Positions 1-62,041 of a DNA stretch of 64,000 bases are shown piece after piece. The notes beneath the pieces were generated by a model that was not told the origin of the DNA, made no database searches, and saw only the letters and a program-made list of their open reading frames with translations. Position 1 is the first letter of the stretch, and each line of letters starts with the position of its first letter. Origin of the DNA: Xanthostigma xanthostigma (Eukaryota > Arthropoda > Insecta > Raphidioptera > Raphidiidae); assembly GCA_963575645.1 (NCBI GenBank), contig OY754473.1, forward strand, positions 4,092,001 to 4,156,000. The letters run 5' to 3'. The translations under genes and the position numbers were made by a program.

Positions 1-219
1 ATGTATATGTCATGCCATTAGTAGAGCCGTAGCTAGCCTGTTTGGGGCCCAATTTTGTAGCATTCAATAAATTAATGTGTGGACCGCTTGTTGGTCTGGT
101 CTCTACCCTTTGACCTTTCCGGGATTCGTTTTCCCGCTCCCCCGCCGACATAGGTCATCGGGTCACTGAGACTCGCAAGCCCTCCCACCGCGACAAGGTC
201 ATGCGGTCCATAGGGAGGG

Positions 220-370
220 GGGTGTGTGTGTATTAATGTATGTATGCAATGTAGGTGTATTTTTTGTGTAATGTATATATATATGTATGCAATGTAAGTG
301 TATGTTTTTGTGTAATGTATGTATATGTATGCAATGTAGGTGTATGTAATGTATATATCTATTTCAACTT
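220..370. repeat. TATG-rich minisatellite, left arm
   Basis: Short GTATG/TAATGTA units separated by GCAATGTAGGTG blocks lie between the ORF stop and the outer end of the left arm. The mirror copy is at about 4995-5140. Position after the ORF suggests 3' untranslated or terminal sequence of the element. Confidence 0.6.
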
Positions 371-486
371 TTCACAATCGATTAAATAACACTTTATGAA
401 TATTCACAATCAAACAAATAACACTTTATAATTTACACTATCACGAATGTCTTGTTTTCGTCTGATGCGGGCAATTTCCGTTGTCG

Positions 487-1431
487 TTAAAGCAGACCTC
501 CTTTACGATAGACGTTGGCAACTTTTTGGCGGAATTTCGATAGACTCGAATCTTTTTTCTTTTTTACAGGTTTCTGCCCCGGCTCCGAAATGTCCGTCTT
601 CTGTTTTTTTGGGGCGGGCTCTATATTTTCGATGGCCTGTTTATCGTGGTTTTTCAGCGTTTTCTCTTCGTCCCGAAGACGTTTGGCGTCCATTGCTCTT
701 AGTCTGATTTCGATTTTCGATTTTCTATTCTGGACGGCTCCCTCATGAAGCTTCTTCTGTCGTTTTTCTAGACGTCGTCGACTGTCCTGCTCCGTTGAAT
801 TACAGCTAGCTATCTTTGTTAATGGCATTGGAAGCATTGCGGCGGACTGCTTCTTTCCTTGCACGACTCGACGTTGAATATCCTTATTCAACTTTTCAAC
901 TTTTTTTTCGGCTGGTACAGGTATCCGCGAAGCTTGTTTTTTCTCATTTCCTAAATTGTTTGATTGTCGTCTTTCTTCTTGCAATAACCGCACGCATTCC
1001 TCTGTGTGCAGCCACATCATGCGATCTCTTTCGGCGTATATATCTTTACCCACGGTATCTTGGAGTTGTTCTGGTTCTATTTTCGAATCGCTATTCTCTT
1101 CTTTTAGTTGAATTTTATCCTTATCACTTGTCGTGCAGCGTATTTTTCGCGGGTCATCTTCACTCAGGGGTTGACTTATCTCCGTTTTCCTTTGTCGATC
1201 CTCTTTCGCCTCTTCGGCATTTGTTTCGGCCATCAATCGTAGCATTTTTTGCCATTTTACTTCATACGTGTCCTCGATTTTTTCCGTTCCTAGACAATCA
1301 AGGAAATCTTTTTTTGTAAACGATCTTATTATATTGTAATTTCCTAGACATTGCTGAATCTCCAAAGCTTCAGCATCCAAAGTGGTAACTCGTCGCATTG
1401 GCCCGAATAGTGATTCTTCAAAACTTGCCAT
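487..1431 (-). CDS. Uncharacterised charged coiled-coil-like protein, left-arm copy
   Basis: This is a 314-codon ORF beginning at an ATG in the context AAAATGGC (complement of 1429-1431). Ten upstream codons remain open but start only with GTG, so the ATG is preferred. The N-terminal 65 residues (ESLFGPMRRVTTLDAEALE onward) look like a compact domain. The middle is rich in Lys, Glu, Arg and Gln with heptad-like runs (DRMMWLHTEECVRLLQEERR). The C-terminus has two basic clusters, KKQKTD and KKKKDSS, which would suit a bipartite nuclear localisation signal. I recognise no transposase, reverse transcriptase or zinc-knuckle motif. It is transcribed away from the element's centre. Compared with the right-arm copy it has 14 amino-acid differences and no frameshift. 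Function unknown; a gag-like or DNA-binding element protein is only a guess. Confidence 0.7.
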   Translation of the reverse strand: MASFEESLFGPMRRVTTLDAEALEIQQCLGNYNIIRSFTKKDFLDCLGTEKIEDTYEVKWQKMLRLMAETNAEEAKEDRQRKTEISQPLSEDDPRKIRCTTSDKDKIQLKEENSDSKIEPEQLQDTVGKDIYAERDRMMWLHTEECVRLLQEERRQSNNLGNEKKQASRIPVPAEKKVEKLNKDIQRRVVQGKKQSAAMLPMPLTKIASCNSTEQDSRRRLEKRQKKLHEGAVQNRKSKIEIRLRAMDAKRLRDEEKTLKNHDKQAIENIEPAPKKQKTDISEPGQKPVKKKKDSSLSKFRQKVANVYRKGGLL

Positions 1432-1469
1432 TTTTAAATTCAAAACACTATTATCGAACACAATTGAAA

Positions 1470-1935
1470 AACACGCACTGACACTATTTTATCACAATTC
1501 AGAAACACACACAGACACTATTTTTTCACAAATCAGAAACACGCAAAATCACAATTTTATCACAAGTAAAAAATACGCACAATCACAATATTGTCACAAA
1601 GAAGTAAACCTGTTAATTCGAAACGCACACAATCACTATAATAACACAAGTAAGTAATTCAAAAGTAACACATACGCATTCACTATTTTATCACAAACAA
1701 GAAACACGCACAATCACAATTTTCTCACAAGTAAGAAATACGAACAATCACAATTTTGTCACAAACAAGTAAACCTGTTAATTTGAAACGCACACAATCA
1801 CTATATTAACACAAGTAAGTAATTCAAAAAAAACACACACGCATTCACTTATTTATCACAAATAAGAAACACGCACAATCACAATTTTATCACAAATAAG
1901 AAACACGCATAAATAAGTAAACCTGTAAGTTAGCA
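1470..1935. repeat. Tandem 34-bp repeat array upstream of left-arm ORF
   Basis: Units of roughly 34 bp of the form ACACGCACAATCACAATT followed by TTATCACAAATAAGAA are repeated with small variations and some spacer units (AAGTAAACCTGTTAATT). The array mirrors the one at about 3540-3905 in the other arm. It lies directly upstream of the ORF, so it may be a promoter, leader or protein-binding array. Confidence 0.75.
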
Positions 1936-2560
1936 ACACGCACAATGGCTGTTTTATCACAATTAAGTAAATACAGCGAAGTTCACAGTATGAAAAGCAC
2001 AATTAAATCGTATAATTTGGTTTATAGATCAAAGAAAATAAAAGAAATTAAATTCCAATCCACTTACCAAAACGATGTTCACAGCACGAAATTCACAACT
2101 GTAATGAAAATTTTGAAAGAAAGTAGGTACCTATAATATAAATCCAATCCGCTTACCTAAGTTTTCGATAAATTTCTCAGAAAAGGTCATTTACAGGTCA
2201 ATTTTCTTTATCATTTAAAAAATTAATGACCGGGTCTAGGTAATTAGTACTTTGTAAAGTACAGTTTTGCCAAAATAAAATTAACTCGACAAGAATTTTT
2301 GTAAATTTAAATATGTTTATACTATTTTGATATAGAAAACATTTATTTAAAGTTAGAGTCAGAAATTTGCAAACAAGCAAAAACATCCACATTGTCGACT
2401 AAATATAATTATAAACACTTCGAATATCTATTTTCAAAAAAAAAAAAATTTTATACAAACCTTGTCGTGACAATTACGAACACAACAAAAAAAAATTCAA
2501 ATCGGTCGAGCCATTTTCGACTTTTGCGAGACTAACGCACGGAGATTGATTTTTTATATA

Positions 2561-3005
2561 CAGTGTAATATAACGAAAAACTCCCTATAATTTTTTACAA
2601 TTTGGTTGGTTTACCTTAAAACCCATACATTAATACCCCCTTTATAGCGCAGCAGCCATGTCTCTATTACGAAAAAATATGTTCATATTTAGGTGTCAGC
2701 AAATGTTTACAGACTTAAAGAGGACGATTCTGAACCATCAACAAGCACTTGATGCAGCCAAAACTTATCGAAAAATTCCTATTGTTTAATGAAGATGATT
2801 CCACCACATAAAATACTTAATAAAATACAAAACAAATATTGGCATAGCAAAAAACGTCAGGCAAAGTTAACAGACTCTATGTGTTTGGAATAAATTAACT
2901 AGGTGAAATTTGGTTATTTTTCTTTCTTCCCTCCATATAACGAAAACTCTTTACAGCGCAAAAAAATGCTCGTCCCTTGAGATTCGTTATAAAAAGGTTA
3001 CACTG
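2561..3005. mobile_element. pogo/Tigger-like miniature element in the centre of the giant repeat
   Basis: The ends are inverted: CAGTGTAATATAACGAA at the left and TTCGTTATAAAAAGGTTACACTG at the right in broken complement. The left end is preceded by TA and the right end followed by CA, consistent with a decayed TA target duplication. The interior resembles the Tigger-like copies at 28487-29039, sharing the phrases ATAACGA-AAACTCC and TCCCTTGAG near the ends. No intact ORF. It inserted after or during formation of the giant inverted repeat and separates its two arms. Confidence 0.7.
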
Positions 3006-3539
3006 CATATAGATAGATAGATATTCGAAGTGTTTCTAATTATATCTAGTCGACAATGTGGATGTTTTTGCTTGTTTGCAAATTTCTGACTCTAACTTTA
3101 AATAAATGTTTTCTATATCAAAATAGTATAAACATATTTAAATTTACAAAAATTCTTGTGGATCTAATTTTATTTTGGCAAAACTGTACTTTACAAAGTA
3201 CTAATTACCTAGACCCGGTCATTAATTTTTTGAATGATAAGGCAAATTGACCTGTAAATTACCTTTTCTGAGAAATTTCTCGAAAAATCAGGTAAGCGGA
3301 TTGGATTTATATTATAGGTACCTACTTTCTTTCAAAATTTTCATTACAGTTGTGAATTTCGTGCTGTGAACATCGTTTTGGTAAGTGGATTAGAATATAA
3401 TTTCTATTATTTTCTTTGATCTATAAGCCAAATTATTCGTTTCATTTGTGATTTTCATACTGTGAACTTTGCTGCGTTTACTTAATTATTGTGATATAAT
3501 AGCCATTGTGTGTTTTGTTGCTATCTTACAGGTTTACTT

Positions 3540-3905
3540 ATTTGTAATAAAAAAGTGAATGCGTGTGTGATACTTTGTAATTGCTTACTTGTGTAAAATA
3601 GTGATTGGGTGCTTTTCAAACTAACAATTTTACTTGCTTGTGACAAAATTGTGATTGTGCGTGTTTCATATTTGTAATAAAATTGTGATTGTGCGTGTTT
3701 CTTATTTGTGATAAAATTGTGACTGTGCGTGTTTCTTTTTCGTGATAAATTTGTGATAGTGCGTATTTCTTATTTGTGATAAAATTGTGATTGTGCGTGT
3801 TTCTTATTTGTGATAAAATAGTGATTGTGCGTGTTTCTTATTTGTGATAAAATAGTGTCTGTGCTTATTTGTGATAAAATAGTGTCTGTGCGTGTTTTTC
3901 AATTG
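3540..3905. repeat. Tandem 34-bp repeat array upstream of right-arm ORF
   Basis: About ten units of the type TTTGTGATAAAATTGTGAT followed by TGTGCGTGTTTCTTA run up to 30 bp before the ORF start. The units are most regular at 3640-3890. This is the mirror of 1470-1935. Regular spacing and proximity to the start codon make a transcriptional or replication role possible; neither is shown by the sequence. Confidence 0.75.
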
Positions 3906-3934
3906 TGTTCGATAATAGTGTTTTGAATTTAAAA

Positions 3935-4879
3935 ATGGCAAGTTTCGAAGAATCACTATTCGGGCCAATACGACGAGTTACCACGTTGGATGCTGAAGCT
4001 TTGGAGATTCAGCAATGTTTAGGAAATTACAACATCATAAGATCGTTTACAAAAAAAGATTTCCTTGATTGTCTAGGAACGGAAAAAATCGAGGACACGT
4101 ATGAAGTAAAATGGCAAAAAATGCTACGATTGATGGCCGAAACAAATGCCGAAGAGGCGAAAGAGGATCGACAAAGAAAAACGGAGATAAGTCAACCTCT
4201 GAGTGAAGATGACCCGCGAAAAACACGCTGCACGACAAGTGATAAGGATAAAATTCAACTAAAAGAAGAGAATACCGATTCGAAAATAGAACCAGAACAA
4301 CCCCAAGATACCGTGACTAAAGATATATACGCCGAAAGAGATCGCATGATGTGGCTGCACACAGCGGAATGCATGCGATTATTGGAAGAAGAAAGACGAC
4401 AAAAAAACAATTTAGGAAATGAGAAAAAACAAGCTTCGCGGATACCTGTATCAGCCGATAAGAAAGTTGAAAAGTTGAATAAGGATATTCAACGTCGAGT
4501 CGTGCAAGGAAAGAAGCAGTCCGCCGCAATGCTTCCAATGCCATTAACAAAGATAGCTAGCTGTAATTCAACGGAGCAGGACAGTCGACGACGTCTAGAA
4601 GAACGACAGAGAAAACTTCATGAGGGAGCCGTCCAGAATAGAAAATCGAAAATCGAAATCAGGCTAAGAGCAATGGACGCCAAACGTCTTCGGGACGAAG
4701 AGAAGACGCGGAAAAACCACGATAAACAGGCCATTGAAAACATAGAGCCCGCCCCAAAAAAACAGAAGACAGACATTTCGGAGCCGGGGCAGAAACCTGT
4801 AAAAAAGAAAAAAGATTCGAGTCTATCGAAATTCCGCCAAAAAGTTGCCAACGTCTATCGTAAAGGAGGTCTGCTTTAA
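3935..4879 (+). CDS. Uncharacterised charged coiled-coil-like protein, right-arm copy
   Basis: This is a 314-codon ORF, the inverted twin of the one at 487-1431, starting at ATG in AAAAATGGC and ending TTTAA. It has the same layout: a compact N-terminal segment, a Lys/Glu-rich middle and a basic C-terminus (KKQKTD, KKKKDSS, ending YRKGGLL). By hand alignment the two copies differ at 31 of 945 positions: 14 codons change the residue (16 nucleotide changes) and 15 changes are silent. Random drift would give roughly three non-synonymous changes per silent one, so the pattern hints at purifying selection. Changes cluster around residues 97-175, while residues 40-96 and the last 60 are almost unchanged. 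Family unknown. Confidence 0.7.
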   Translation: MASFEESLFGPIRRVTTLDAEALEIQQCLGNYNIIRSFTKKDFLDCLGTEKIEDTYEVKWQKMLRLMAETNAEEAKEDRQRKTEISQPLSEDDPRKTRCTTSDKDKIQLKEENTDSKIEPEQPQDTVTKDIYAERDRMMWLHTAECMRLLEEERRQKNNLGNEKKQASRIPVSADKKVEKLNKDIQRRVVQGKKQSAAMLPMPLTKIASCNSTEQDSRRRLEERQRKLHEGAVQNRKSKIEIRLRAMDAKRLRDEEKTRKNHDKQAIENIEPAPKKQKTDISEPGQKPVKKKKDSSLSKFRQKVANVYRKGGLL

Positions 4880-4994
4880 CGACAACGTAAATTGCCCGCA
4901 TCAGACGAAAACAAGACATTTGTGATAGTGTGAATTATAAAGTGTTATTTGTATGATTGTGAATATTTATAAAGTGTTATTTGTTCGATTGTGA

Positions 4995-5140
4995 AAAGTT
5001 GAAATAGATATATACATTACATACACCTACATTGCAAACATATACATACATTGCACAAAAACATACACTTACATTGCATACATATACATACATTACACAA
5101 AAACATACACATACATTGCATACATACATTAATACACACA
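4995..5140. repeat. CATA-rich minisatellite, right arm
   Basis: About 40-bp units with ACATTGCATACATATACATAC and CACAAAAACATACA blocks repeat two to three times. Mirror of 220-370. Confidence 0.6.
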
Positions 5141-5311
5141 CACCCCCCTCCCTATGGACCGCACGACCTTGTCGCGGTGGGAGGGCTTGCGAGTCTCAGT
5201 GACCCGATGACCTATGTCGGCGGGGGAGCGGGAAAATGAACCCCGGAAAGGTCAAAGGGTAGAGACCAGACCAACAAGCGGTCCACACATTAATTTATTG
5301 AATGCTACAAA

Positions 5312-5830
5312 CATGAATTAACTAAAGCTAGGTACTACTTATATTGTTTACTATTTTCGGACGAGTTCCCATAAAATTGTAGAGTTCTTTTTTTATTAAT
5401 GCGAATTTTTCTAGGGCCCCCTGTCCGTTTAGATACTACCGGTACGTTTCGTAGCGTAGTCCGCCATTCCTTTTTAACGTTACGTGACGACTCTACAATA
5501 TATATAATATATCCTATTTGCTATTAATAAGTCAGCATCGTGATTGCGGACACGATTTACCTTCTGACCTTGGTACAATAATCGAACAACAAATAATCCT
5601 AACTATCGATTAATTGTTGAAAGCCCATTCAAGCGTCGCGCGCAACTGTTGTCTTTGTTGCTCGTTTGTTTTTGATAGGACTTTTAATTATGAATGACAC
5701 GAGACTGCTATCACATCGAATAGATTAAAAATTTATCGGCTCAGGACATATTCTAAAACTAGCTGCTTCCCGCGATTCCGCACTCGATTGTGATAAAACA
5801 CGGTAGCATTAAAAGTAGTGGAGCTTTATA
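5312..5830. other. Intergenic stretch without recognised features
   Basis: AT-rich sequence between the giant inverted repeat and the next dispersed repeat. I see no ORF with coding character, no RNA gene and no clear repeat. Confidence 0.5.
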
Positions 5831-6100
5831 CTAGCGGGCCCGCCCGGTTTCACCCGGGTGCAAAAAAGCGAATGTTCAAAAGTTTTTGTCGGGCGGACAA
5901 AGTTTGAGTTAGATTTTTCAACATTTTTCATTGATGCTACGCTCCTATTGGTCGTAGCGTGATATTATATAGCCTATAGCCTTCCTCGATAAATGGACTA
6001 TCCAACAAAAGACATTTTTTTCAATTCGAACCAGTAGTTCCTGAGATTACCGCGTTCAACCAAACAAACAAACTCTTCAGCTTTATATAATAGTATAGAT
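5831..6100 (+). repeat. Dispersed repeat family A, copy 1
   Basis: Starts CTAGCGGGCCCGCCCGG and ends CTTCAGCTTTATATAATAG. It contains the blocks TATTGGTCGTAGCGTGATAT and AACCAGTAGTTCCTGAGATT. Other copies: 62348-62688 (same strand, longest), 58168-58902 (opposite strand, interrupted) and an end fragment near 53390. It looks like a truncated non-autonomous retroelement or Helitron-type family common in insects; the class is not decided here. Confidence 0.7.
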
Positions 6101-7250: not shown

Positions 7251-7519
7251 AATAGTTTCTCAACCGGTGTTCCGGGGAGATTTTTGGGTGGTCCGCGAAG
7301 ATTATTAGGATGGATTTTTAAACTATATTTGTTTGTTACTGTTTGTTTAATTTTACTTAAATATTGTTATATCTGCATACGGTGTTGCAAAATTGTTTTG
7401 AAAAAAAAAAATCAATTATATAAATATTTTTTAAATAAATAAAATTGTCGACCAATTTTTCTCAGACCATATGTAGACAAAAAATAATAAAAATACAAAT
7501 CAATATAACACAAAATGAC

Positions 7520-7548
7520 TTTTCGATCCGGATTTGAATCTTCTTCAG
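7520..7548 (-). other. Hammerhead-ribozyme-like core, decayed
   Basis: Minus-strand reading gives CTGAAGA, a stem GATTC...GGATC with a mismatch, and GAAAA in place of GAAAC. It is the mirror of 7753-7781 in the other arm of the palindrome. Confidence 0.35.
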
Positions 7549-7752
7549 AAATATCAAAAAAATATAAAAAATAATTAGTATTAAGTTATTAATTATCTAA
7601 TAGAATTCACGGAAGATTGAAAGTTTGAATAAATCAAAAAATTAATGAAAAATTAATTAATTTTTTGATTTATTCAAACTTTTAATCTTTCATGAATTCT
7701 ATTAGATAATAAATACTTAATACTAATTAATTTTTATATTTTTTAGATATTT

Positions 7753-7781
7753 CTGAAGAAGATCCAAATCCGGATCGAAAC
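7753..7781 (+). other. Hammerhead-ribozyme-like core
   Basis: Reads CTGAAGA, then a potential stem GATCC...GGATC, then GAAAC. This is the conserved order CUGANGA / helix II / GAAA of hammerhead ribozymes, as found in Penelope-like retroelements. A 3-bp helix III (ACG...TGT) followed by a UA cleavage dinucleotide can be drawn, but I could not form helix I, so activity is doubtful. The inverted partner is at 7520-7548. Confidence 0.4.
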
Positions 7782-7987
7782 GTCATCTTGTATTATATTG
7801 ATTTGTATTTTTATTATTTTTTGTCAATATAATATGGTCGACAATTTTATTCATTTGAAGAGTTCTATTCAGACGTTAATCAAAGGTTTGTATATAAATA
7901 TTTATTATTTTATTTCAATGTTGATGGCCCGCAAAACATTTTTGGTGGTCCGCGGATGTAAAAAGGTTGAGAAACTATGAACTAGAC

Positions 7988-11303: not shown

Positions 11304-11415
11304 GGATTAGTACCTTTAAAAAAATTAGTATTGATTTAGGTTTAGACAACTAGCTTTATTAAATACTAGTGGTTGGGTCCGGCTTCGCTCGATTTTTTTT
11401 TTACTCCTAAGCTAT

Positions 11416-12140
11416 TAGTCTGGGAGGTGGTGTCAAAATTTATCAGTGATTTATCTGCGACTCAAATGTAATTGATTGAAGAGTTTAACCATTACTCTGT
11501 TCGAAATCGAAAGTCAGTCAGCGCTCCCGCGGTGGGTGTGGGCGTGGGAGGCTGTGAAACTTGTCGGAAAAACTATGAAAAAAAGTGATAAATCTGCTGA
11601 TGAAAATTTGTTAGATTGTAAATAATTTATGATTAGACGTGAAAATACTCGTCAGTCACTTTCCCGACGGGGGAAACATCGTCAGTCATGAATGGTTTCC
11701 TTTAAAAGAATATCAATTGCTCAGTGTTTGAATTTAAAATCAATATTTTCAGAACGAATAGTAGGAACTGAAACATTCTATTCCTACTATTCGTTCTGAA
11801 AATATCGATTTTAAATTCAAACACTGAGCATTGGAGCAATTGATATTCTTTTAAAGGAAATCATTCATGACTGACGATGTTTCCCCCGTCGGGAAAGTAG
11901 CTAACGAGTATTTTCACGTTTAATCATCAATTATTTACAATCTAACAAATTTTCATCAGCAGATTTATCACTTTTTTTCATAGTTTTTCCGACAAGTTTC
12001 ACAGCCTCCCACGCCCACACCCACCGCGGGAGCGCTGACTGACTTTCGATTCCGAACAGAGTAATGGTTAAACTCTTCAATCAATTACATTTGAGTCGGA
12101 GATAAATCACTAATAAATTTTGACACCACCTCCCGGACTA
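11416..12140. repeat. 725-bp near-perfect palindrome
   Basis: The arms 11416-11770 and 11784-12140 are reverse complements with only scattered mismatches. The spacer is about 13 bases (CTGAAACATTCTA). Ends are TAGTCTGGGAGGTGGTGTCA and complement. The arms contain a GC-rich block, GCTCCCGCGGTGGGTGTGGG, in otherwise AT-rich DNA. No ORF. The family looks like a foldback element; no second copy is in the window. Confidence 0.9.
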
Positions 12141-13948
12141 TATAGAAAAGCACAATAAAATAAATTGTGGATCTATAATAGCAATTTTATTTTGTTGAAA
12201 TGCTAATTAGTAATTACATAGTGTTTAAAAGTTGTAGGTACTTACCACAGAACCTGTGGTACTTACCAACTATATTTCCCAAAAAAAAAAAAACACAAAA
12301 TATCACTAAATAACTTTTTATTTACGTAAATTCCATTTACAAATATTTACATTATTAAAATCGTAGAAGTAAATACTCTAAGCAAATACAGAAAACGAAA
12401 TCTTTGAACTTATTGGTCGTATATAGCCATGCAAAAAATGTTGCATAAATGAAAAAATAACCTTTAAATCACCTTCGGTGTTGTTCCCTCAGTGATTGTT
12501 AACTGATTTAGAACAAGTCTTATATAATGAAAAATATATTAAACTCGTTATATTTCGTTCGATTTGAAAGTATATTTAGCGTCGAAACTTGAAAGTCATG
12601 CCTGAATTTACTTTAAAAATGAATTTAGTATTGAAAGTCATACCAAAAACTCAACATAACACGATCCATTTGATCTATGATAGTAGGCATTGGCGATGCG
12701 AGTGAATTTTGACGATGAGTAACATTAAAATTAACAGGGTGAAGTTGCTCGCAGAAAAGGCTACCAACAGAATAGAGGTAGGGACCATGTTCTGTATTTA
12801 TGCTAATCATTTATCATTTTATTTTAATAAATAATTTGCATGCAAATTAAAAATTAGTTTTTCATCACGCCAAAGAACTTTTAAGGAGGTTGAGCCGTTT
12901 TACGAAGATAATGAAAAAAACTGAAATATAGTTTTTTTAATAGATTTTTTTATGACAAAATTTTCTGTAAAAAATCCAAAATCATTAGGAGATTTATAAT
13001 GTTAAAAATTAAAAAAAAAAAACTTTTACATGTAGTCTTATGGAAAATATGTCAACCTAGCATGCGAACGGTACATTTTAATTTTTTGCAAATAACCAAA
13101 TAATGTCAGCAGTTCCGAAAACTAACTACGTAAAGCATCGCACTTTTCGATTGTGGACTTTTATTCTTGACAATTTTGACTGAATTTTCAACTTTTTAAT
13201 GATTTAATTTTAATTTTTATTACTTCTAATTTCTTTTTTTAATTATATACTGCAAAAAATATGTAACATACAGATATTTACATAAATTTATTTTTTCTAA
13301 CCTAACTTTGTACAAAAAATTCAAAAGTTAGTCCATTAAGTAAAATACTAAAATAATTAATTAATATTAAAAAAAAAATTATTTATGCCTTTATGACAAT
13401 AATTTATTGGTATCATCGACTTATAACCTTTTGTAAAAATTTATTATGGAAAAGTTCCCATTTAGAATCCGACTTACTTTTGATTGGGACTGTAACGCAT
13501 CAACCTCCTTAACGTACTTAAGTACACGCACTCATTTTTTTACGTTATAATCTAATATTTACGCCAATTTTTTTTTTGTACATCATCACAATATTTAATA
13601 CCTATCAGATTAATGGAAAAATTCGAGTGGCATCTTTTGAGGGAAGTTATGAACTAAGATACTTCTTGAATTAAAATGTGTTCAAAAAGTTTCGTCTTCT
13701 ATATTATCATTGTGATATTTATACACATGACATAACAATTATTTACAAAAATTCAGTCATCTTCAAAACCATCAACATTCTTTTCACATTACAAAACTAA
13801 CTATGAGCTAAATTAATATTAAAAAATTATTTTTAAAGATGACTTATAAACTCTATGGTTGCTGGTGAAGAGAGAGTTTCCATTGAGCAAGAAAATGTGA
13901 AGCACCATGGAATATTTGATTAATGTCTCGTATTACAAACAAACAAAT
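12141..13948. other. Intergenic stretch, one possible decayed TIR element
   Basis: AT-rich. A 13-bp inverted pair TTAAGGAGGTTGA at 12881-12893 and its complement at 13500-13512 could be ends of a decayed element. No coding ORF or RNA gene is supported. Confidence 0.4.
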
Positions 13949-28486: not shown

Positions 28487-29039
28487 CAGTGCAAACTCCA
28501 TTCAACGTCACTCGATATAACGACAAACTCCTTAAAACGTCGAAATTACTTAATTCTAGTTGGTTTACCTTGTTGCTCATAAAAATAACGACACACCCAC
28601 TCTAAATAACGACAACAACACGTCATCATTAAGCAATAAACAGTACTTGTTTGTTATTTTGTTGCTTTGTTGTCGGCATCATGCGTACCGAAGATTCTAA
28701 AAAATTCGTTCTTTTGTTTGTTGTAATTATCTTTCATATGATTAGCTGCTTATCGATAAGTTATCATATTCTTAGTTGCCCACAAACTTGCAAACTGTGA
28801 ACATGGCGAGTAAAAGAAAATCTTTGTGTATTGACGAAAAAGTTTTATTAATATGCGCAATAGAGGCGGGAGAAAAGATAAGTGATGTTGGAAGACGCTT
28901 TGGATTCAGTCGCTCGACCGTATCGACAATATGGAAAAAAAATATTAATGGATTATTTCTTCTCTCCGTTTAACGACAACTCTCAATAACGCCACAAAGT
29001 GCACAGCCCCTTGAGTGTCGCTATATAGAGTTTACACTG
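28487..29039 (+). mobile_element. Tigger/pogo-like deletion derivative (intronic)
   Basis: Flanked by TA on both sides (28485-28486 and 29040-29041). Ends are CAGTGCAAACTCCATTCAAC and a matching AGAGTTTACACTG. It keeps the first 47 codons of a transposase (28803 on) and then jumps to right-end sequence. Related pieces: 42447-42909 (same deletion), 59973-60063 and 52207-52226 (ends only) and the more distant 2561-3005. Confidence 0.85.
28803..28973 (+). pseudogene. Truncated pogo/Tigger-type transposase N-terminus
   Basis: Reads MASKRKSLCIDEKVLLI, then CAIEAGEKISDVGRRFG and FSRSTVSTIWKKN. This is the helix-turn-helix (CENP-B/Psq-type) DNA-binding start of Tigger-like transposases. After codon 47 the frame enters unrelated terminal sequence and stops nine codons later; the catalytic domain is deleted. 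The in-frame ATG nine codons upstream is less likely because the family normally begins at MAxKRK. Confidence 0.8.
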
Positions 29040-29470
29040 TATATCGCTGTATTAATTCAAGTTTTTATCATTATTTATGATCTAAGTGGCGGCCATAATT
29101 ATTTTATCAAGCGAATAAATATTTATACCAACGAAGTAAGACAGAATAGATTTATACCTGCAGTAAGCATAATTATGATTGGTGAATTGAATTATCGCTA
29201 TATACTCGGAGGAATAGTTACCTGATGAAGAAATGAACCGACTAAATAATTACTTACGTTCGGTCTATATGGCCATGAGTCAATTATCAAAGCAATTCTT
29301 AAATAACACAGCGGATAATGCCGAAGTATTCCGAAAGGATGAATAAAACGACACCAAAATCCTTCATAATCATTTCGCGCACATATAAAAAAGGATCATA
29401 AGAAGACAAACATGGGTTGGATATGCATTTGGCTTTTCAACAATCAAGGAATCTATCCATAGTTACTTAC

Positions 29471-42446: not shown

Positions 42447-42909
42447 TGACAAACTCCTTAAAAGTTAAAACGTCGAAATTACTTAGAAGGTTTACCTTGT
42501 TGCTTATACAATGATACACTCTAAATAACGACACATCCACTCTAAATAACGACAAAAATACGTCATCATTAAGCAATAAACAGTACTTGTTTGTTATTTT
42601 GTTGCTTTGTTGTCGACACCATGCGTACCAAAGATTATTTTGTTTGTTGGGATTATCTTTCATATGTTTAGCTCAGCTGCTTATCGATAGGTTATCATAT
42701 TCTTTGTTGCCCACAAACTTGCAAAAAAGTTTTATTAATACGTGCAATAGAGGCGGGAGAAAAGATAAGTGATGTTGGAAGACGCTTTGGATTCAGTCGC
42801 TCGATCGTATCGACAATGTGGAAGAACAAATTAATGGATTATTTCTTCTCTCCGTTTAACGACACAAAGTGCACAGTCCCTTGAGTGTCGCTATATAGAG
42901 TTTACACTG
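42447..42909 (+). mobile_element. Tigger/pogo-like deletion derivative, copy 2
   Basis: Same layout as 28487-29039, with right end AGAGTTTACACTG. Transposase codons are further eroded: the start region is missing and the frame resumes at GCAATAGAGGCGGGAGAAAA. The left terminus is absent. Confidence 0.75.
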
Positions 42910-43334
42910 TATGTTAAGTAATCAAACAAATTGACTGTTATTTTTTTAGCGTCAGCTGTTAATATTTTGGAAAGATCAACTTTCGGTATTCTTCCACTTA
43001 AGAGATTGCAACTGCATAACTCAGCATCAGCTGTGAGTTTCGGACGATGTCTACTTTATGAATGCTTTTATTTTTGAAGTGGTCAACTTTCTCTACCTCA
43101 TATAGTTGCAGTAAACCACAAGTTATACATTATTAGGTCCAACTATATATGCTCATTAACGGAAGATATTGAGTTAAATCACACGATGATCGAATGAATG
43201 CCGACAGTGCAGTAAGAAATAGGTACAGGGTGCGGTCAAAAGATTTGTTTTTTTTTTGTTGACGAAACAAACGAACGAAAGTACATCGACCTGCAGAATA
43301 CAGATCAATTAATCAAGAAAAAAAAACAGTAGGT

Positions 43335-47570: not shown

Positions 47571-48929
47571 TTTAACTATAATTGTATCCTTTTGAGGTAT
47601 AGGTATGTAAAAATCATCAAATAATAACACGGGATTAAGAAACTTCAATGAATGCATTATTATATAAATAAATCGATCGTTAAGATGTTCTACTCGACTT
47701 GTGCATAATAAAAGAAACGATTTAACATAAAATATACGGTTGCGTAAAAGAGTGGGCCGCAACTATCCACCGATGATGACTCGGTTAATTCTTTAATTCT
47801 CTTTCCGTTTTCTATAATTTATTTACTATACTTTTGATTTGTTTCCGCTTTTCATTTTCATGAATACCAACTGCTAATTGGATTAGTATAACAAATAAAT
47901 GCGTAACAATAAAAAAACACTCTTACGCAATCATTACATCTATTGTTTTACAATAAATAATTATATTGTTGATTTAATAAACCACAAACTTAGGTACATA
48001 ATTGGGCTTTTGAATGAAATTTTTTTTTGTCATAAATGGAAAGATCGTATATAAGTTTTATAACAAAACTATTTTTCTTTTTTTTATTTTCGTTATAATT
48101 CAAAAGTTATATCAAATTAAAAATAAATTTTTGTACCCAGTTCCGAGAACGCGCCGACATTTCCCGAACATAATGTGACGTCATAATGGTAATTTATATT
48201 ATTATAATAATAATACATGTAGAAGCCATTGATAGTATACTGCGTACCTATATATACATTTTAACATTATGACGTCACAACTGTCAAAAACAATTTTAGT
48301 GCGTTTGCAGTCACGTGATTTTTTTAAATATTTTATCAATTTTAAATTGCTTATAATTAATTTAAAAAAAGTTTTTTGAAAGTTTTTCGCATCGATATTA
48401 TCAATATTATTTATAATAAAGTTTTAAAATACAATAAAAAAATCGATAATTATTTTTTTTTTCAAAAGCCTAATTGCTTAGGGATCAAACCACGAGGAGA
48501 TTCTATGTATTTCGTTTATAGTACGCGCCACGAATCTAAAAGTCTGTTGAAAAACTACAAACTCGCAACTCAACATAACTAAAATAACAATAACAACTTG
48601 ACAATATAGGGTACTCGACTGTACTTTAAAGCAAGAAAGCGACAAGTGAAAAAAGGCAACGAGCGATCACGGCCAATCACCGACGAGCGCACGTTACGTG
48701 CAGGTAGTAGTCTATAGTCTATATTCTATAATATCTCTATGTTTGATGCAGTAGCAAAGTATGCTGATTACAGTGTTTCGTATCTAATTGATTAACGAAA
48801 ATTATTATTGTACGAGATTCATTAGACGATTAGCCAATCTGTCACGCCGATATAAATTCTCTACGAATGTTAGCGCGAGCCGGTCACGCTTTCGCCGTCT
48901 ACGGCCGGCGTGCCTTCTTTATTAGCAGA
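47571..48929. other. Stretch without recognised genes
   Basis: AT-rich. GTGACGTCATAATGG at about 48176 faces ATTATGACGTCAC at about 48268, a possible small inverted element. No exon supported. Confidence 0.35.
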
Positions 48930-48965
48930 CTAGCGGCCCGGTCCGGCTTCGCCCGGATTTGTATT
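48930..48965 (+). repeat. Family L head fragment
   Basis: CTAGCGGCCCGGTCCGGCTT matches the head of 44476-44957. Confidence 0.6.
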
Positions 48966-50015
48966 GACTGCCAATTAAGGGGGGGCACCTAGTGTAACAG
49001 CTCAAAAAAAAACCGCTTATTTCAAACATTTTTTTTAGACTAACTATACTTGTATGATATGTTAATGAATTAGGCCTTATAGAACAGCTTTTAAAGTTTT
49101 TTCGGTACAAAATGGCGGCGTGGTAAGCATTTCTATCAGGTGCGATGTTCATTTTGTGGGCGTAATTACAGCCCTTAGAGTGAACCTGGAACACCCATTC
49201 AAAAAATTTCTTGTTAATAACATTCATAATTCGTAGTTAAACCTATAAAATATGTAAAAAAATGAAAAAGAAGTATTTAATTTGAAGTTTGAAAAACATT
49301 TTTCATTTTTCGCATAAAATGTCGACCTATAAACATTTATAAATCAAATTTTTAACAATAATTTACCAAACAAGTAGGTTCAACTACGAATAAAAGTTGT
49401 TTTTTATATCTGGTAAAAATTTCGGCCCATAATCTTCAATAGTTTTTTAGATATTACGCCATAAAATTTCGAAAATGATGTTTTAAGAAAAACGCCTTTA
49501 AAAAAATTAGGTTTGATAGTGAACAAATTTGTAATTAATACCCTAACTATTAACGTAAAAAATCTCGTTTTGAAATTTTGTAGGCTTGTTCTACATAAGA
49601 TTTGATCATTTCTAAGCAAAAAAAATCTTTTTTTTGAGCTGTTGCACTAGGAAACGCGTTCAATTTAACTAACCAAAATAAATTCCCAGAAGCACAACTG
49701 TTGCACAAGGAACCGACCACACAACGGCATGGTACGCCACTGACCTGGGCACTCACACTTCGGTAATGTTCGGTTCTCGGCATATGTATATTTCGCATTT
49801 ATCTATTTTTTTTTATAATCACCTCAAAAACTGTAAACAATTTCATTTCTCTTTTAACGGACGTCTAAAGTTATTCTTCCGTTATCTTTACAAAAACAAT
49901 TACCGTGATTGTAAAATTAGTCATAAAAATTAATAACGTTTCGTTTAATTTCTCAATGATAAACGCGAGACTAGAAACAGAAACGAAACAGAAAAAAACA
50001 CTTTCTTTTATTTTC
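48966..50015. other. Stretch without recognised genes
   Basis: AT-rich, with imperfect TTGCACAAGGAA / TTGCACTAGGAA repeats at 49640-49710. No exon or RNA gene supported. Confidence 0.35.
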
Positions 50016-58167: not shown

Positions 58168-58902
58168 TATCTATACTAATATATAAAGCTGAAGAGTTTG
58201 TTTGTTTGGTTGAACGAGCTAATCTCAGGAACTACTGGTTCAAATTGAAAAAAAAAATTTTGTTGGATAGCCCATTTATCGAGGAAGGCTATAGGCTATA
58301 TAATATCACGCTACGGCCAATAAGAGCGGAGCATCAATGAAAAATGTTGCAAAATGTATCTCAAAAATAAGCTTCTATTCATGTGAAACGCCGTAACTAA
58401 ATATACCAATGTTAGCGTTGCACATTCAGAAGCCCAACTGGCTCAGTCGGTAGAGTACGTGACTCTTAATATCAGAGTCGTCGGTTCGAGCCCCACGTTG
58501 GGCGAATATATTTTTAATTTTTTTTTCATTTTCTACATTACTTTCTTACATTCAAAAGTATTTTAATTTTATTTACGACTAATTAAAATTAAATAAATCT
58601 AATTAATAGCTCATTTGAAAACTGTTATAACTATAGGGACCTATATAAAAATAATTTTCCTACAGTGTTTTCAATTAAATATTTATTATATTTTATTAAA
58701 TGATTTAACAGAAATTTATTGTCTATACTTATAAAAAGTATAATTACTGCTTTTTATCGACAAAAACTTTTGAACGGTAACTCCGATCGTCATGAAATTT
58801 GGACACAACTTTCATCTCGGTAAACTAAGATGAACGTGCGACTCACATCCCTCCCCCCCATTCGTTCTTTTGCACCCGGGCGAAACCGGGCGGGAACTCT
58901 AG
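58168..58902 (-). repeat. Dispersed repeat family A, copy 2, interrupted
   Basis: Opposite strand to 5831-6100. Both halves (58168-58360 and about 58740-58902) match the continuous copy at 62348-62688, but a block of about 370 bp with a tRNA-Lys-like sequence separates them. Confidence 0.7.
58432..58504 (+). tRNA. tRNA-Lys(CTT)-like gene, probably a pseudogene
   Basis: 73 nt: acceptor GCCCAAC...GTTGGGC and discriminator G pair perfectly. The D-arm GCTC/GAGT is intact with one G-T pair, and the anticodon loop CTCTTAA gives CTT. The anticodon stem CGTGA/TATCA has three mismatches and the T stem GTCGG/CCCAC one mismatch. An AT/T-rich tract follows (TATTTTTAATTTTTTTTT), which could terminate RNA polymerase III. 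Mutations in the stems argue for a pseudogene or a SINE head. Confidence 0.6.
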
Positions 58903-59769: not shown

Positions 59770-59941
59770 AAATTAAAAAAAAACTATTTAAATTAAAGTT
59801 ATAACGTTAATAAATTATTGAAAACAAAAAAAACCCGTTGTGCCCGACTATATCTTTTTAATTAGTCGGGCATAACGGTTTTTTTTTTGTTTTCAATAAT
59901 TTATTAAGGTTTTAACTTTAATTTAAATAGTTTTTTTTAAA
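59770..59941. repeat. Hairpin palindrome with about 75-bp arms
   Basis: AACTATTTAAATTAAAGTTA and TAATTTAAATAGTT outer parts with CCGTTGTGCCCGACTA / TAGTCGGGCATAACGG inner parts around a short AT loop. Confidence 0.85.
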
Positions 59942-59972
59942 TTTTATTATTAATAAATACATATTATAGTAA

Positions 59973-60063
59973 AAAAATATTAATGGATTATTTCTTCTCT
60001 CCGTTTAACGACAACTCTCAATAACGCCAAAAAGTGCACAGTCCCTTGAGTGTTTACACTTTA
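59973..60063 (+). mobile_element. Tigger/pogo-like right-end fragment
   Basis: AATATTAATGGATTATTTCT through CCCTTGAGTG and TTTACACT, matching the last 90 bp of 28487-29039. Confidence 0.7.
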
Positions 60064-61535: not shown

Positions 61536-62041
61536 AATAAATAAAATTATCGAGCAATTTTTCAGACAATATATTAACAAAAAATATAATTAATACATTA
61601 ACTTCAGTTAAAGTAATGTTGATCCAATAGAATATTAAGATGAAGGAAGGTTTTGGTTGAGGATCATAGAATAAGCTTTACCAGTGTTTCGCTAGTGGCC
61701 AACGTTTCGAAAAAATTATTTTCATATTCAGGGCCACTAGCGAAACACTGGTAAAGCTTATTCTATGATCCTCAACCAAAACCTTCCTTCATCTTAATAC
61801 ATTAACGTTTCAATTATTATTTTTTCAATATTTTGATACTAATTAATAATTTTGAAAGAATTTTATATAAAGCGAATTAGAAATTAAATAGTAATTATAT
61901 TTTTTACATCAGTTCTGAAGAAGGTCCAAATCCGGATTGAAACGTTAATGTATTAATTATATTTTTTGTTAATATATTGTCTGAAAAATTGGTCGATAAT
62001 TTTATTTATTGAAGAGTTCTACTCAGACGTTAATCAAAGAT
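61536..62041. repeat. Foldback family C, copy 2
   Basis: Outer arms with AATAAATAAAATTATCGAGC and the mirrored GGTCGATAATTTTATTTATT, and the GTTCTACTCAGACGTTAATC tail. A perfect 67-bp inverted repeat lies inside the left half. A hammerhead-like core (CTGAAGA, GGTCC...GGATT, GAAAC) is at 61915-61943 on the plus strand. Confidence 0.78.
61634..61798. repeat. Perfect 67-bp inverted repeat with 31-base spacer
   Basis: 61634-61700 and 61732-61798 are exact reverse complements (ATTAAGATGAAGGAAGG...). The spacer is AACGTTTCGAAAAAATTATT plus 11 bases. Zero mismatches indicate recent origin. Confidence 0.95.

What the first reader, a model, noticed from the sequence alone, without database searches (positions are those of the whole stretch)
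54..5311. Giant inverted repeat carrying the same unknown gene in both arms
Two arms of about 2.3-2.4 kb face each other, each with a 314-codon ORF directed outward and a 34-bp tandem array upstream. I recognise no known family for the protein. The design (divergent twin genes, shared centre, defined outer ends) does not match the miniature elements around it. It may be an undescribed foldback-type mobile element or a selfish gene pair, and it could be a source of double-stranded RNA.
Basis: partly seen in the sequence, partly recalled or inferred. Interest (0 to 1): 0.75.

Follow-up and report, generated by a model that had tools for sequence, protein, structure and literature searches.

The report
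Dispersed palindromes carrying twin unknown genes
The window starts with one of a family of DNA palindromes scattered over several chromosomes, each carrying the same unknown protein gene in both mirror-image halves; how they spread, and why they stay mirror images, is open.

Summary
Arms 54-2431 and 3017-5311 are inverted copies, 90.7% identical. Each carries an open 314-codon gene directed outward, under purifying selection (dN 0.022, dS 0.086), behind a 34-bp array. The window's own genome (623 Mb) gave 65 protein matches (a lower bound), merged to 46 gene copies; 30 of them form 15 pairs on seven chromosomes, 15 of 15 head-to-head. I fetched 9 of the 15 pairs; 9 of 9 are palindromes. The two arms of a locus are each other's closest relatives in 8 of 9, so arms are homogenised or made anew. 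Pfam, NCBIfam and PDB gave no credible family. Against a textbook transposon: no target-site duplication at the arm ends, no transposase domain, and 54 and 5311 are not the ends of the shared unit, since other copies share the flanks, differently on each side. Best reading: a foldback-like mobile family with a novel basic protein in each arm (0.52). Close rival: an ampliconic host gene family spread by segmental duplication (0.35). Outer limits were not reached; only 1 of 36 genome-search calls was answered.

The parts
54..2431 (.). left arm of the palindrome
   Evidence: 90.7% inverted match to 3017-5311
3017..5311 (.). right arm of the palindrome
   Evidence: same
487..1431 (-). gene of the left arm, 314 codons, basic protein of unknown family
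   Evidence: open frame; dN 0.0218, dS 0.0857 against the right copy
3935..4879 (+). gene of the right arm, 314 codons
   Evidence: open frame; random placement of the 32 changes gives 14 or fewer residue changes with P 0.0008
1459..1907 (-). 34-bp tandem array (165-bp higher-order unit) in the leader of the left gene
3638..3897 (+). 34-bp tandem array in the leader of the right gene
3292..3531 (+). splice-like sites in the leader (GTAAG at 3292 and 3381, TTACAG ending at 3531), mirrored in the left arm; putative leader introns
   Evidence: donor-like motif in 18 of 19 arms, acceptor-like motif in 7 of 19. Splicing itself untested
2432..3016 (.). centre: a 124-bp piece, then a MITE (2556-3009); 320 bp of it are shared at 85% with the centre of the C3 copy, so it belongs to the dispersed unit in part of the family
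   Evidence: not shared with the centres of C10:3028, C10:3129 or C1:4912
54..230 (.). G+C-rich outer block, least diverged non-coding part (3 of 177 differ; excess conservation not significant, Fisher P 0.057)
5135..5311 (.). G+C-rich outer block, right arm
5312..6081 (.). flank X, outside the palindrome, 86% shared with the right flank of the copy at C10:3028
1..53 (.). inner part of flank Y (about 235 bp in all, running out of the window), 88% shared with the right flank of the C3 copy

Best explanation
A family of foldback-like mobile elements whose two long arms each carry the same protein gene (it works like a foldback element; membership is not claimed). Shown: copies dispersed over seven chromosomes, a head-to-head layout in 15 of 15 pairs found, centres shared within groups of loci (not across all), selection on the protein, and arms of one locus being closest relatives in 8 of 9. 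Inferred: the unit spreads as a whole (arms plus centre, perhaps with extra flank); each new copy starts with near-identical arms, either because one arm templates the other during spread (snap-back copying) or because arms convert each other afterwards; the palindrome centre then degrades first. The protein (pI 9.5, about 22% Lys+Arg, predicted helical at low confidence, basic clusters that resemble nuclear localisation signals, a recalled motif) probably acts in the nucleus on DNA, RNA or chromatin. The oriented TTGTGA-rich leader repeats may be its binding sites or promoter units. The cutting enzyme may be this protein, or may be supplied by another element.
For: 65 matches, merged to 46 gene copies, 15 of 15 pairs head-to-head on C1, C3, C4, C5, C8, C10, C12. 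9 of 9 fetched pairs (of 15) are palindromes, arm identity 89-99.9%. Arms are sisters in 8 of 9 loci, three of them as identical coding sequences; the ninth, C1:31014, is unresolved. Within-locus dS 0-0.091, while the C1:4912 copy differs from all other loci by dS 1.2-2.0. Recent spread: copies on C1, C5 and C8 differ by dS 0.005-0.035. Centres shared: ours with C3 at 85%, the C1/C5/C8 group at 95-99%. TTGTGA in the 600-bp leader: 5-15 sense and 0 antisense in 19 of 19 arms. C5:22696 has no mismatch over its outer 3,462 bp, with divergence rising towards the centre.
Against: No target-site duplication at the arm ends. Arm ends are not constant: ours, C10:3028, C3 and C6 match from about 54; C10:3129 matches ours only from 80; C1:4912 runs about 175 bp further; the C1/C5/C8 group runs at least 1.1 kb further (except the left side of C5:14097, 741 bp); C8:27267 has outer arm sequence found in no other fetched copy. 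Flanks X and Y are shared outside the palindrome, as in segmental duplication. Centres of C10:3028, C10:3129 and C1:4912 match none of the others, apart from 165 bp between the first two. No transposase or integrase domain in the gene, and no second ORF of 90 codons or more that recurs between loci except ORFs antisense to the gene. 10 of 26 hand-made clusters lie on C10, 6.6% of the assembly, unlike free transposition. The outer limits of the unit were not reached.
Confidence: 0.52

Rival explanations
1. An ampliconic host gene family: a lineage-specific host gene kept in palindromes, spread by segmental duplication and homogenised by gene conversion between arms, as for multicopy germline genes on sex chromosomes.
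For: Shared flanks outside the palindrome; no duplicated target site at the arm ends; clustering on C10, 10 of 26 hand-made clusters, P 3e-6, or 6 of 22 without the four near the window, P 0.0024; unpaired, more distant copies with open frames of 417-430 codons on C10; selected genes.
Against: Spread over seven chromosomes, with near-identical copies on C1, C5 and C8. Only head-to-head pairs found, 15 of 15. Whether C10 is a sex chromosome is unknown. The query is itself a C10 copy, which biases the clustering.
Confidence: 0.35
2. A non-autonomous retroelement pair: an ORF1-type gene with promoter-like leader repeats and a special 3' end, copied in trans.
For: Tandem leader repeats, a little-diverged G+C-rich 3' block, a basic protein.
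Against: Head-to-head pairing in 15 of 15 pairs and centres shared at DNA level within groups; no target-site duplication at the arm ends; the 3' block folds no better than shuffles (z -0.76); putative introns are kept in the leader.
Confidence: 0.05
3. A hairpin-RNA locus whose read-through transcript yields siRNAs.
For: Long near-identical arms.
Against: Genes point outward and would give same-sense mRNAs; the protein is under selection; an AATAAA lies at 66 on the strand reading into the left arm (its reading as a poly(A) signal is recalled).
Confidence: 0.04
4. Assembly artefact.
For: Long inverted repeats can arise from chimeric reads (general knowledge).
Against: Arms differ by about 9%, arrays differ in structure, and the layout recurs in 15 pairs.
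Confidence: 0.01

Closest known systems
Foldback elements (Drosophila FB, Tetris)
   Same: Long inverted arms with internal tandem repeats around a variable middle part (Tetris: sections 10 and 17 of PMC4079207 read).
   Different: The three complete Tetris copies lack conserved ORFs and Tetris has 8-10 bp target duplications (same sections); here each arm carries a selected gene and no target duplication was found at the arm ends.
Galileo (P superfamily)
   Same: [quoted passage not shown] extension of the repeats is discussed (abstract and background of PMC3573991 read).
   Different: Galileo's transposase lies between the repeats (recalled); here the gene is in the arms and matches no transposase family.
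Ampliconic palindromes of sex chromosomes
   Same: Inverted duplicates that allow gene conversion between arms (start of the abstract of PMC3403216 seen in the listing).
   Different: Those are large and sit on one chromosome (recalled); these have arms of about 2.2 kb to 3.9 kb or more and are dispersed over seven chromosomes.
Hairpin-RNA loci of Drosophila
   Same: Inverted repeats (listing only).
   Different: Here the arms hold coding, outward-directed, selected genes.

Membership tests
Foldback-type transposon | Long inverted arms with internal tandem repeats | tested here: met
Foldback-type transposon | Dispersed copies | tested here: met
   15 pairs on seven chromosomes
Foldback-type transposon | Target-site duplication (8-10 bp in Tetris, PMC4079207 section 10) | tested here: not met
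   none at the arm ends; true ends of the unit may lie further out and were not reached
Foldback-type transposon | Arm ends shared by all copies | tested here: not met
   arm ends vary; flanks shared one-sidedly
Foldback-type transposon | Linked or related transposase | tested here: inconclusive
   no domain in the gene and no recurring second sense ORF in the fetched parts; sequence further out was not available and trans-acting elements were not searched
Ampliconic palindromic gene family | Gene in both arms, arms alike within a locus | tested here: met
   (8 of 9 loci)
Ampliconic palindromic gene family | Sex-chromosome location and germline expression | not testable with these tools
   chromosome identities and expression unknown; clustering on C10 only
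Hairpin-RNA locus | Transcript across both arms, siRNAs | not testable with these tools
   no RNA data; anatomy argues against

The most novel reading that the evidence does not exclude
A new class of mobile element that is reborn as a perfect palindrome at each move: one arm, with its gene for a novel DNA- or RNA-binding protein, templates the other through a snap-back intermediate, so every new copy carries two identical genes, and the palindrome decays from its centre afterwards.
Probability: 0.17. Interest if true: 0.85.

Novelty: new variant of a known kind. Interest (0 to 1): 0.6.

Why it matters
How foldback elements move, and why their arms stay alike, is to my knowledge poorly understood. 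This family has many copies of graded age, each with two selected genes whose divergence dates the arms separately from the locus, so arm regeneration can be told from later gene conversion. It also defines a protein family that none of the searched libraries holds. If the host-gene reading is right, it is a dispersed ampliconic palindrome family with hints of concentration on one chromosome, a pattern associated elsewhere with genetic conflict.

Tried and rejected
First idea, that the central MITE inserted later at this locus only: dropped, since the C3 and C6 copies share parts of it. Host gene pair unique to this place: dropped. An earlier 201-kb sample of the genome without arm or protein matches had suggested low copy number; it was too small and misled. 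Structured RNA at the outer ends: folding no better than shuffles (z -0.76 and -1.20), Rfam matches only far below the gathering scores. Monomer with its own terminal repeats: no significant match between outer and inner arm ends. Structure: low confidence (mean pLDDT 59), so no fold search was run. No relatives by protein in viral contigs or genome contigs, no exact match of one outer-end pattern there. Pfam hits of single family members are weak (ARGLU, 1 of 13 members, E 0.0032; Tcf25, 1 of 13, E 0.12; POR_N, 2 of 13, E 0.63) and I read them as chance or composition. Lack of indels in the CDS is no evidence: the inner non-coding part has none either. Similarity of our copy's left and right flanks just outside 54/5311: P 0.084.
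Full report
Observation. The first 5.3 kb of the window are a palindrome: arms 54-2431 and 3017-5311 match inverted at 90.7% over 2,385 columns. Each arm carries a 314-codon ORF directed outward. The two ORFs differ at 32 of 945 nt and 14 residues, dN 0.0218, dS 0.0857. If the same changes are placed at random, as few residue changes arise with P 0.0008; keeping the frame free of stops has P 0.157 and is no strong evidence. The 34-bp arrays lie upstream of the start codon in both arms. Divergence is uneven: 1.7% in the outer 177 bp, 11.5% in the leader arrays; the outer block's lower divergence is not significant (Fisher P 0.057).

Protein. No Pfam family up to E 10 for the two window proteins, no NCBIfam, no PDB relative by sequence or profile (one E 0.72 match to ribosomal L29). 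Single weak Pfam hits of other family members (best ARGLU, E 0.0032, 1 of 13) look like chance or composition. pI is 9.5, with basic clusters. AlphaFold gives helices at low confidence (mean pLDDT 59). In an alignment of 13 of the 19 arm genes in hand the others are 56-96% identical to the window's right copy, and the C-terminal YRKGGLL is invariant. Reading the basic clusters as nuclear localisation signals is recalled knowledge.

Copies. The genome search was answered once. It placed the window at C10:4092001-4156000 of a 623.3-Mb assembly in 28 contigs and gave 65 matches from 60 scored candidates (a lower bound). Merging same-strand pieces closer than 1.3 kb gives 46 gene copies; 30 of these form 15 pairs less than 6 kb apart, and 15 of 15 are head-to-head. 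16 copies are unpaired; several hold stops, and three places on C10 have open frames of 417-430 codons with pieces at 46-69% identity (one piece holds a stop).

Palindromes. I obtained 9 of the 15 pairs and one half locus (C6). 9 of 9 are palindromes with the gene in both arms: C10:4092 (ours), C10:3028, C10:3129, C3:25572, C5:14097, C5:22696, C1:31014, C8:27267, C1:4912. Arm identity runs from 89.2% (C10:3028) to 99.92% over 3,890 bp (C5:22696). By arm length there are loci with arms of about 2.2-2.4 kb (C10:4092, C10:3028, C10:3129, C3) and a C1/C5/C8 group with arms of at least 3.1-3.9 kb; by the tree, C10:3129 is nearer to the latter. C1:4912 is a distant member.

Arms belong together. In a tree of 19 coding sequences the two arms of a locus are sisters in 8 of 9 loci, three of them as identical pairs; C1:31014 is unresolved. 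Within-locus dS is 0, 0, 0, 0.015, 0.035, 0.076, 0.080, 0.086 and 0.091; between-locus dS runs from 0.005 to 2.0. A tree of the 445 bp after the stop codon pairs the arms in 6 of 9 (three as identical pairs) and leaves C10:3028, C3 and C1:31014 unresolved. So arms do not descend as separate left and right lineages: they are homogenised or regenerated. The four loci with 2.2-2.4-kb arms share a similar within-locus dS (0.076-0.091), compatible with one period of spread followed by independent decay. C5:22696 has no mismatch over the outer 3,462 bp and rising divergence towards the centre.

Centre. 320 bp of the centre of the window copy, a 124-bp piece followed by a MITE, are shared with C3 (85%), and parts with C6 and C5:14097. 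The C1/C5/C8 centres match each other at 95-99%. The centres of C10:3028, C10:3129 and C1:4912 match none of these; the first two share 165 bp with each other. The 124-bp piece is single in ours, C3 and C5:14097, present on both sides in C5:22696, C1:31014 and C8:27267, single in the half locus C6, and not found in C10:3028, C10:3129 and C1:4912. Either arms grow inward or palindrome centres lose one side; the direction is not settled.

Ends. The palindrome ends are not the ends of the shared unit. Right of 5311, 770 bp (X) match the C10:3028 flank at 86%; left of 54, about 235 bp (Y) match the C3 flank at 88%; X and Y differ. C10:3129 matches ours only from 80, C1:4912 runs about 175 bp further, and in the C1/C5/C8 group the arms run at least 1.1 kb further. 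C5:14097 and C1:31014 lose the match on one side only. C8:27267 has outer arm sequence seen in no other fetched copy. No target-site duplication stands out. This is the main weakness of the transposon reading.

Selection. Between loci omega runs from 0.13 to 0.54, mostly 0.14-0.47 (the 0.54 of C1:31014 against C5:22696 rests on very few changes). The C3 left gene is longer than its partner (355 against 330 codons) and matches only residues 7-308, so one gene there may be failing. C10:3028 left shows a stop that lies outside its 314-codon ORF. Other ORFs of 90 codons or more are antisense to the gene or sit singly in one locus (arm, centre or flank).

Leader. TTGTGA occurs 5-15 times in the 600 bp before each gene and its reverse complement never, in 19 of 19 arms. 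A GGTAAG[C/T]GG donor-like site is found in 18 of 19 arms and a TTACAGGTTTACTT acceptor-like site in 7 of 19. This suggests spliced leaders, without RNA evidence.

Distribution. Grouped by hand, the copies form 26 clusters, 10 on C10, which is 6.6% of the assembly: P 3e-6, or P 0.0024 (6 of 22) without the four near the window. The query was a C10 copy, so this is biased.

Verdict. Papers: for Tetris (PMC4079207) I read the outline with abstract and sections 10 and 17; for Galileo (PMC3573991) the outline with abstract and the background; all others only in search listings. In six searches the listed titles and abstract starts showed no foldback element with a coding gene in each arm; most subscription journals are absent from that library, so this is weak evidence of novelty. 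The host is probably an insect; this is an impression from repeat types, not a test.

Noticed in passing
11412-12145: A 734-bp near-perfect palindrome (93.7%), one of several foldback MITE-like palindromes in the window (also 7430-7859, 59770-59944, 61633-61799).
   Followed up: partly
G000 C10:13160271-13161506, 13169602-13170870, 13945961-13947229: Unpaired, more distant copies of the gene with longer open frames; possibly the ancestral, non-palindromic form.
   Followed up: no
48925-49236: ORF with a weak Pfam match to the sarcoglycan alpha/epsilon N-terminal domain (E 0.0085, below cut-off).
   Followed up: no
19468-41127: Minus-strand run of Thr/Ser-rich open frames that look like exons of a large mucin-like gene; no Pfam match for the four tested.
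   Followed up: no
58432-58504: tRNA-like sequence with a stop anticodon, probably a tRNA-derived repeat.
   Followed up: no
2556-3009, with kin at 28522-29042, 42448-42912, 59965-60053: MITE family with termini like TATACAGTGTAA; kin also in the genome sample.
   Followed up: partly
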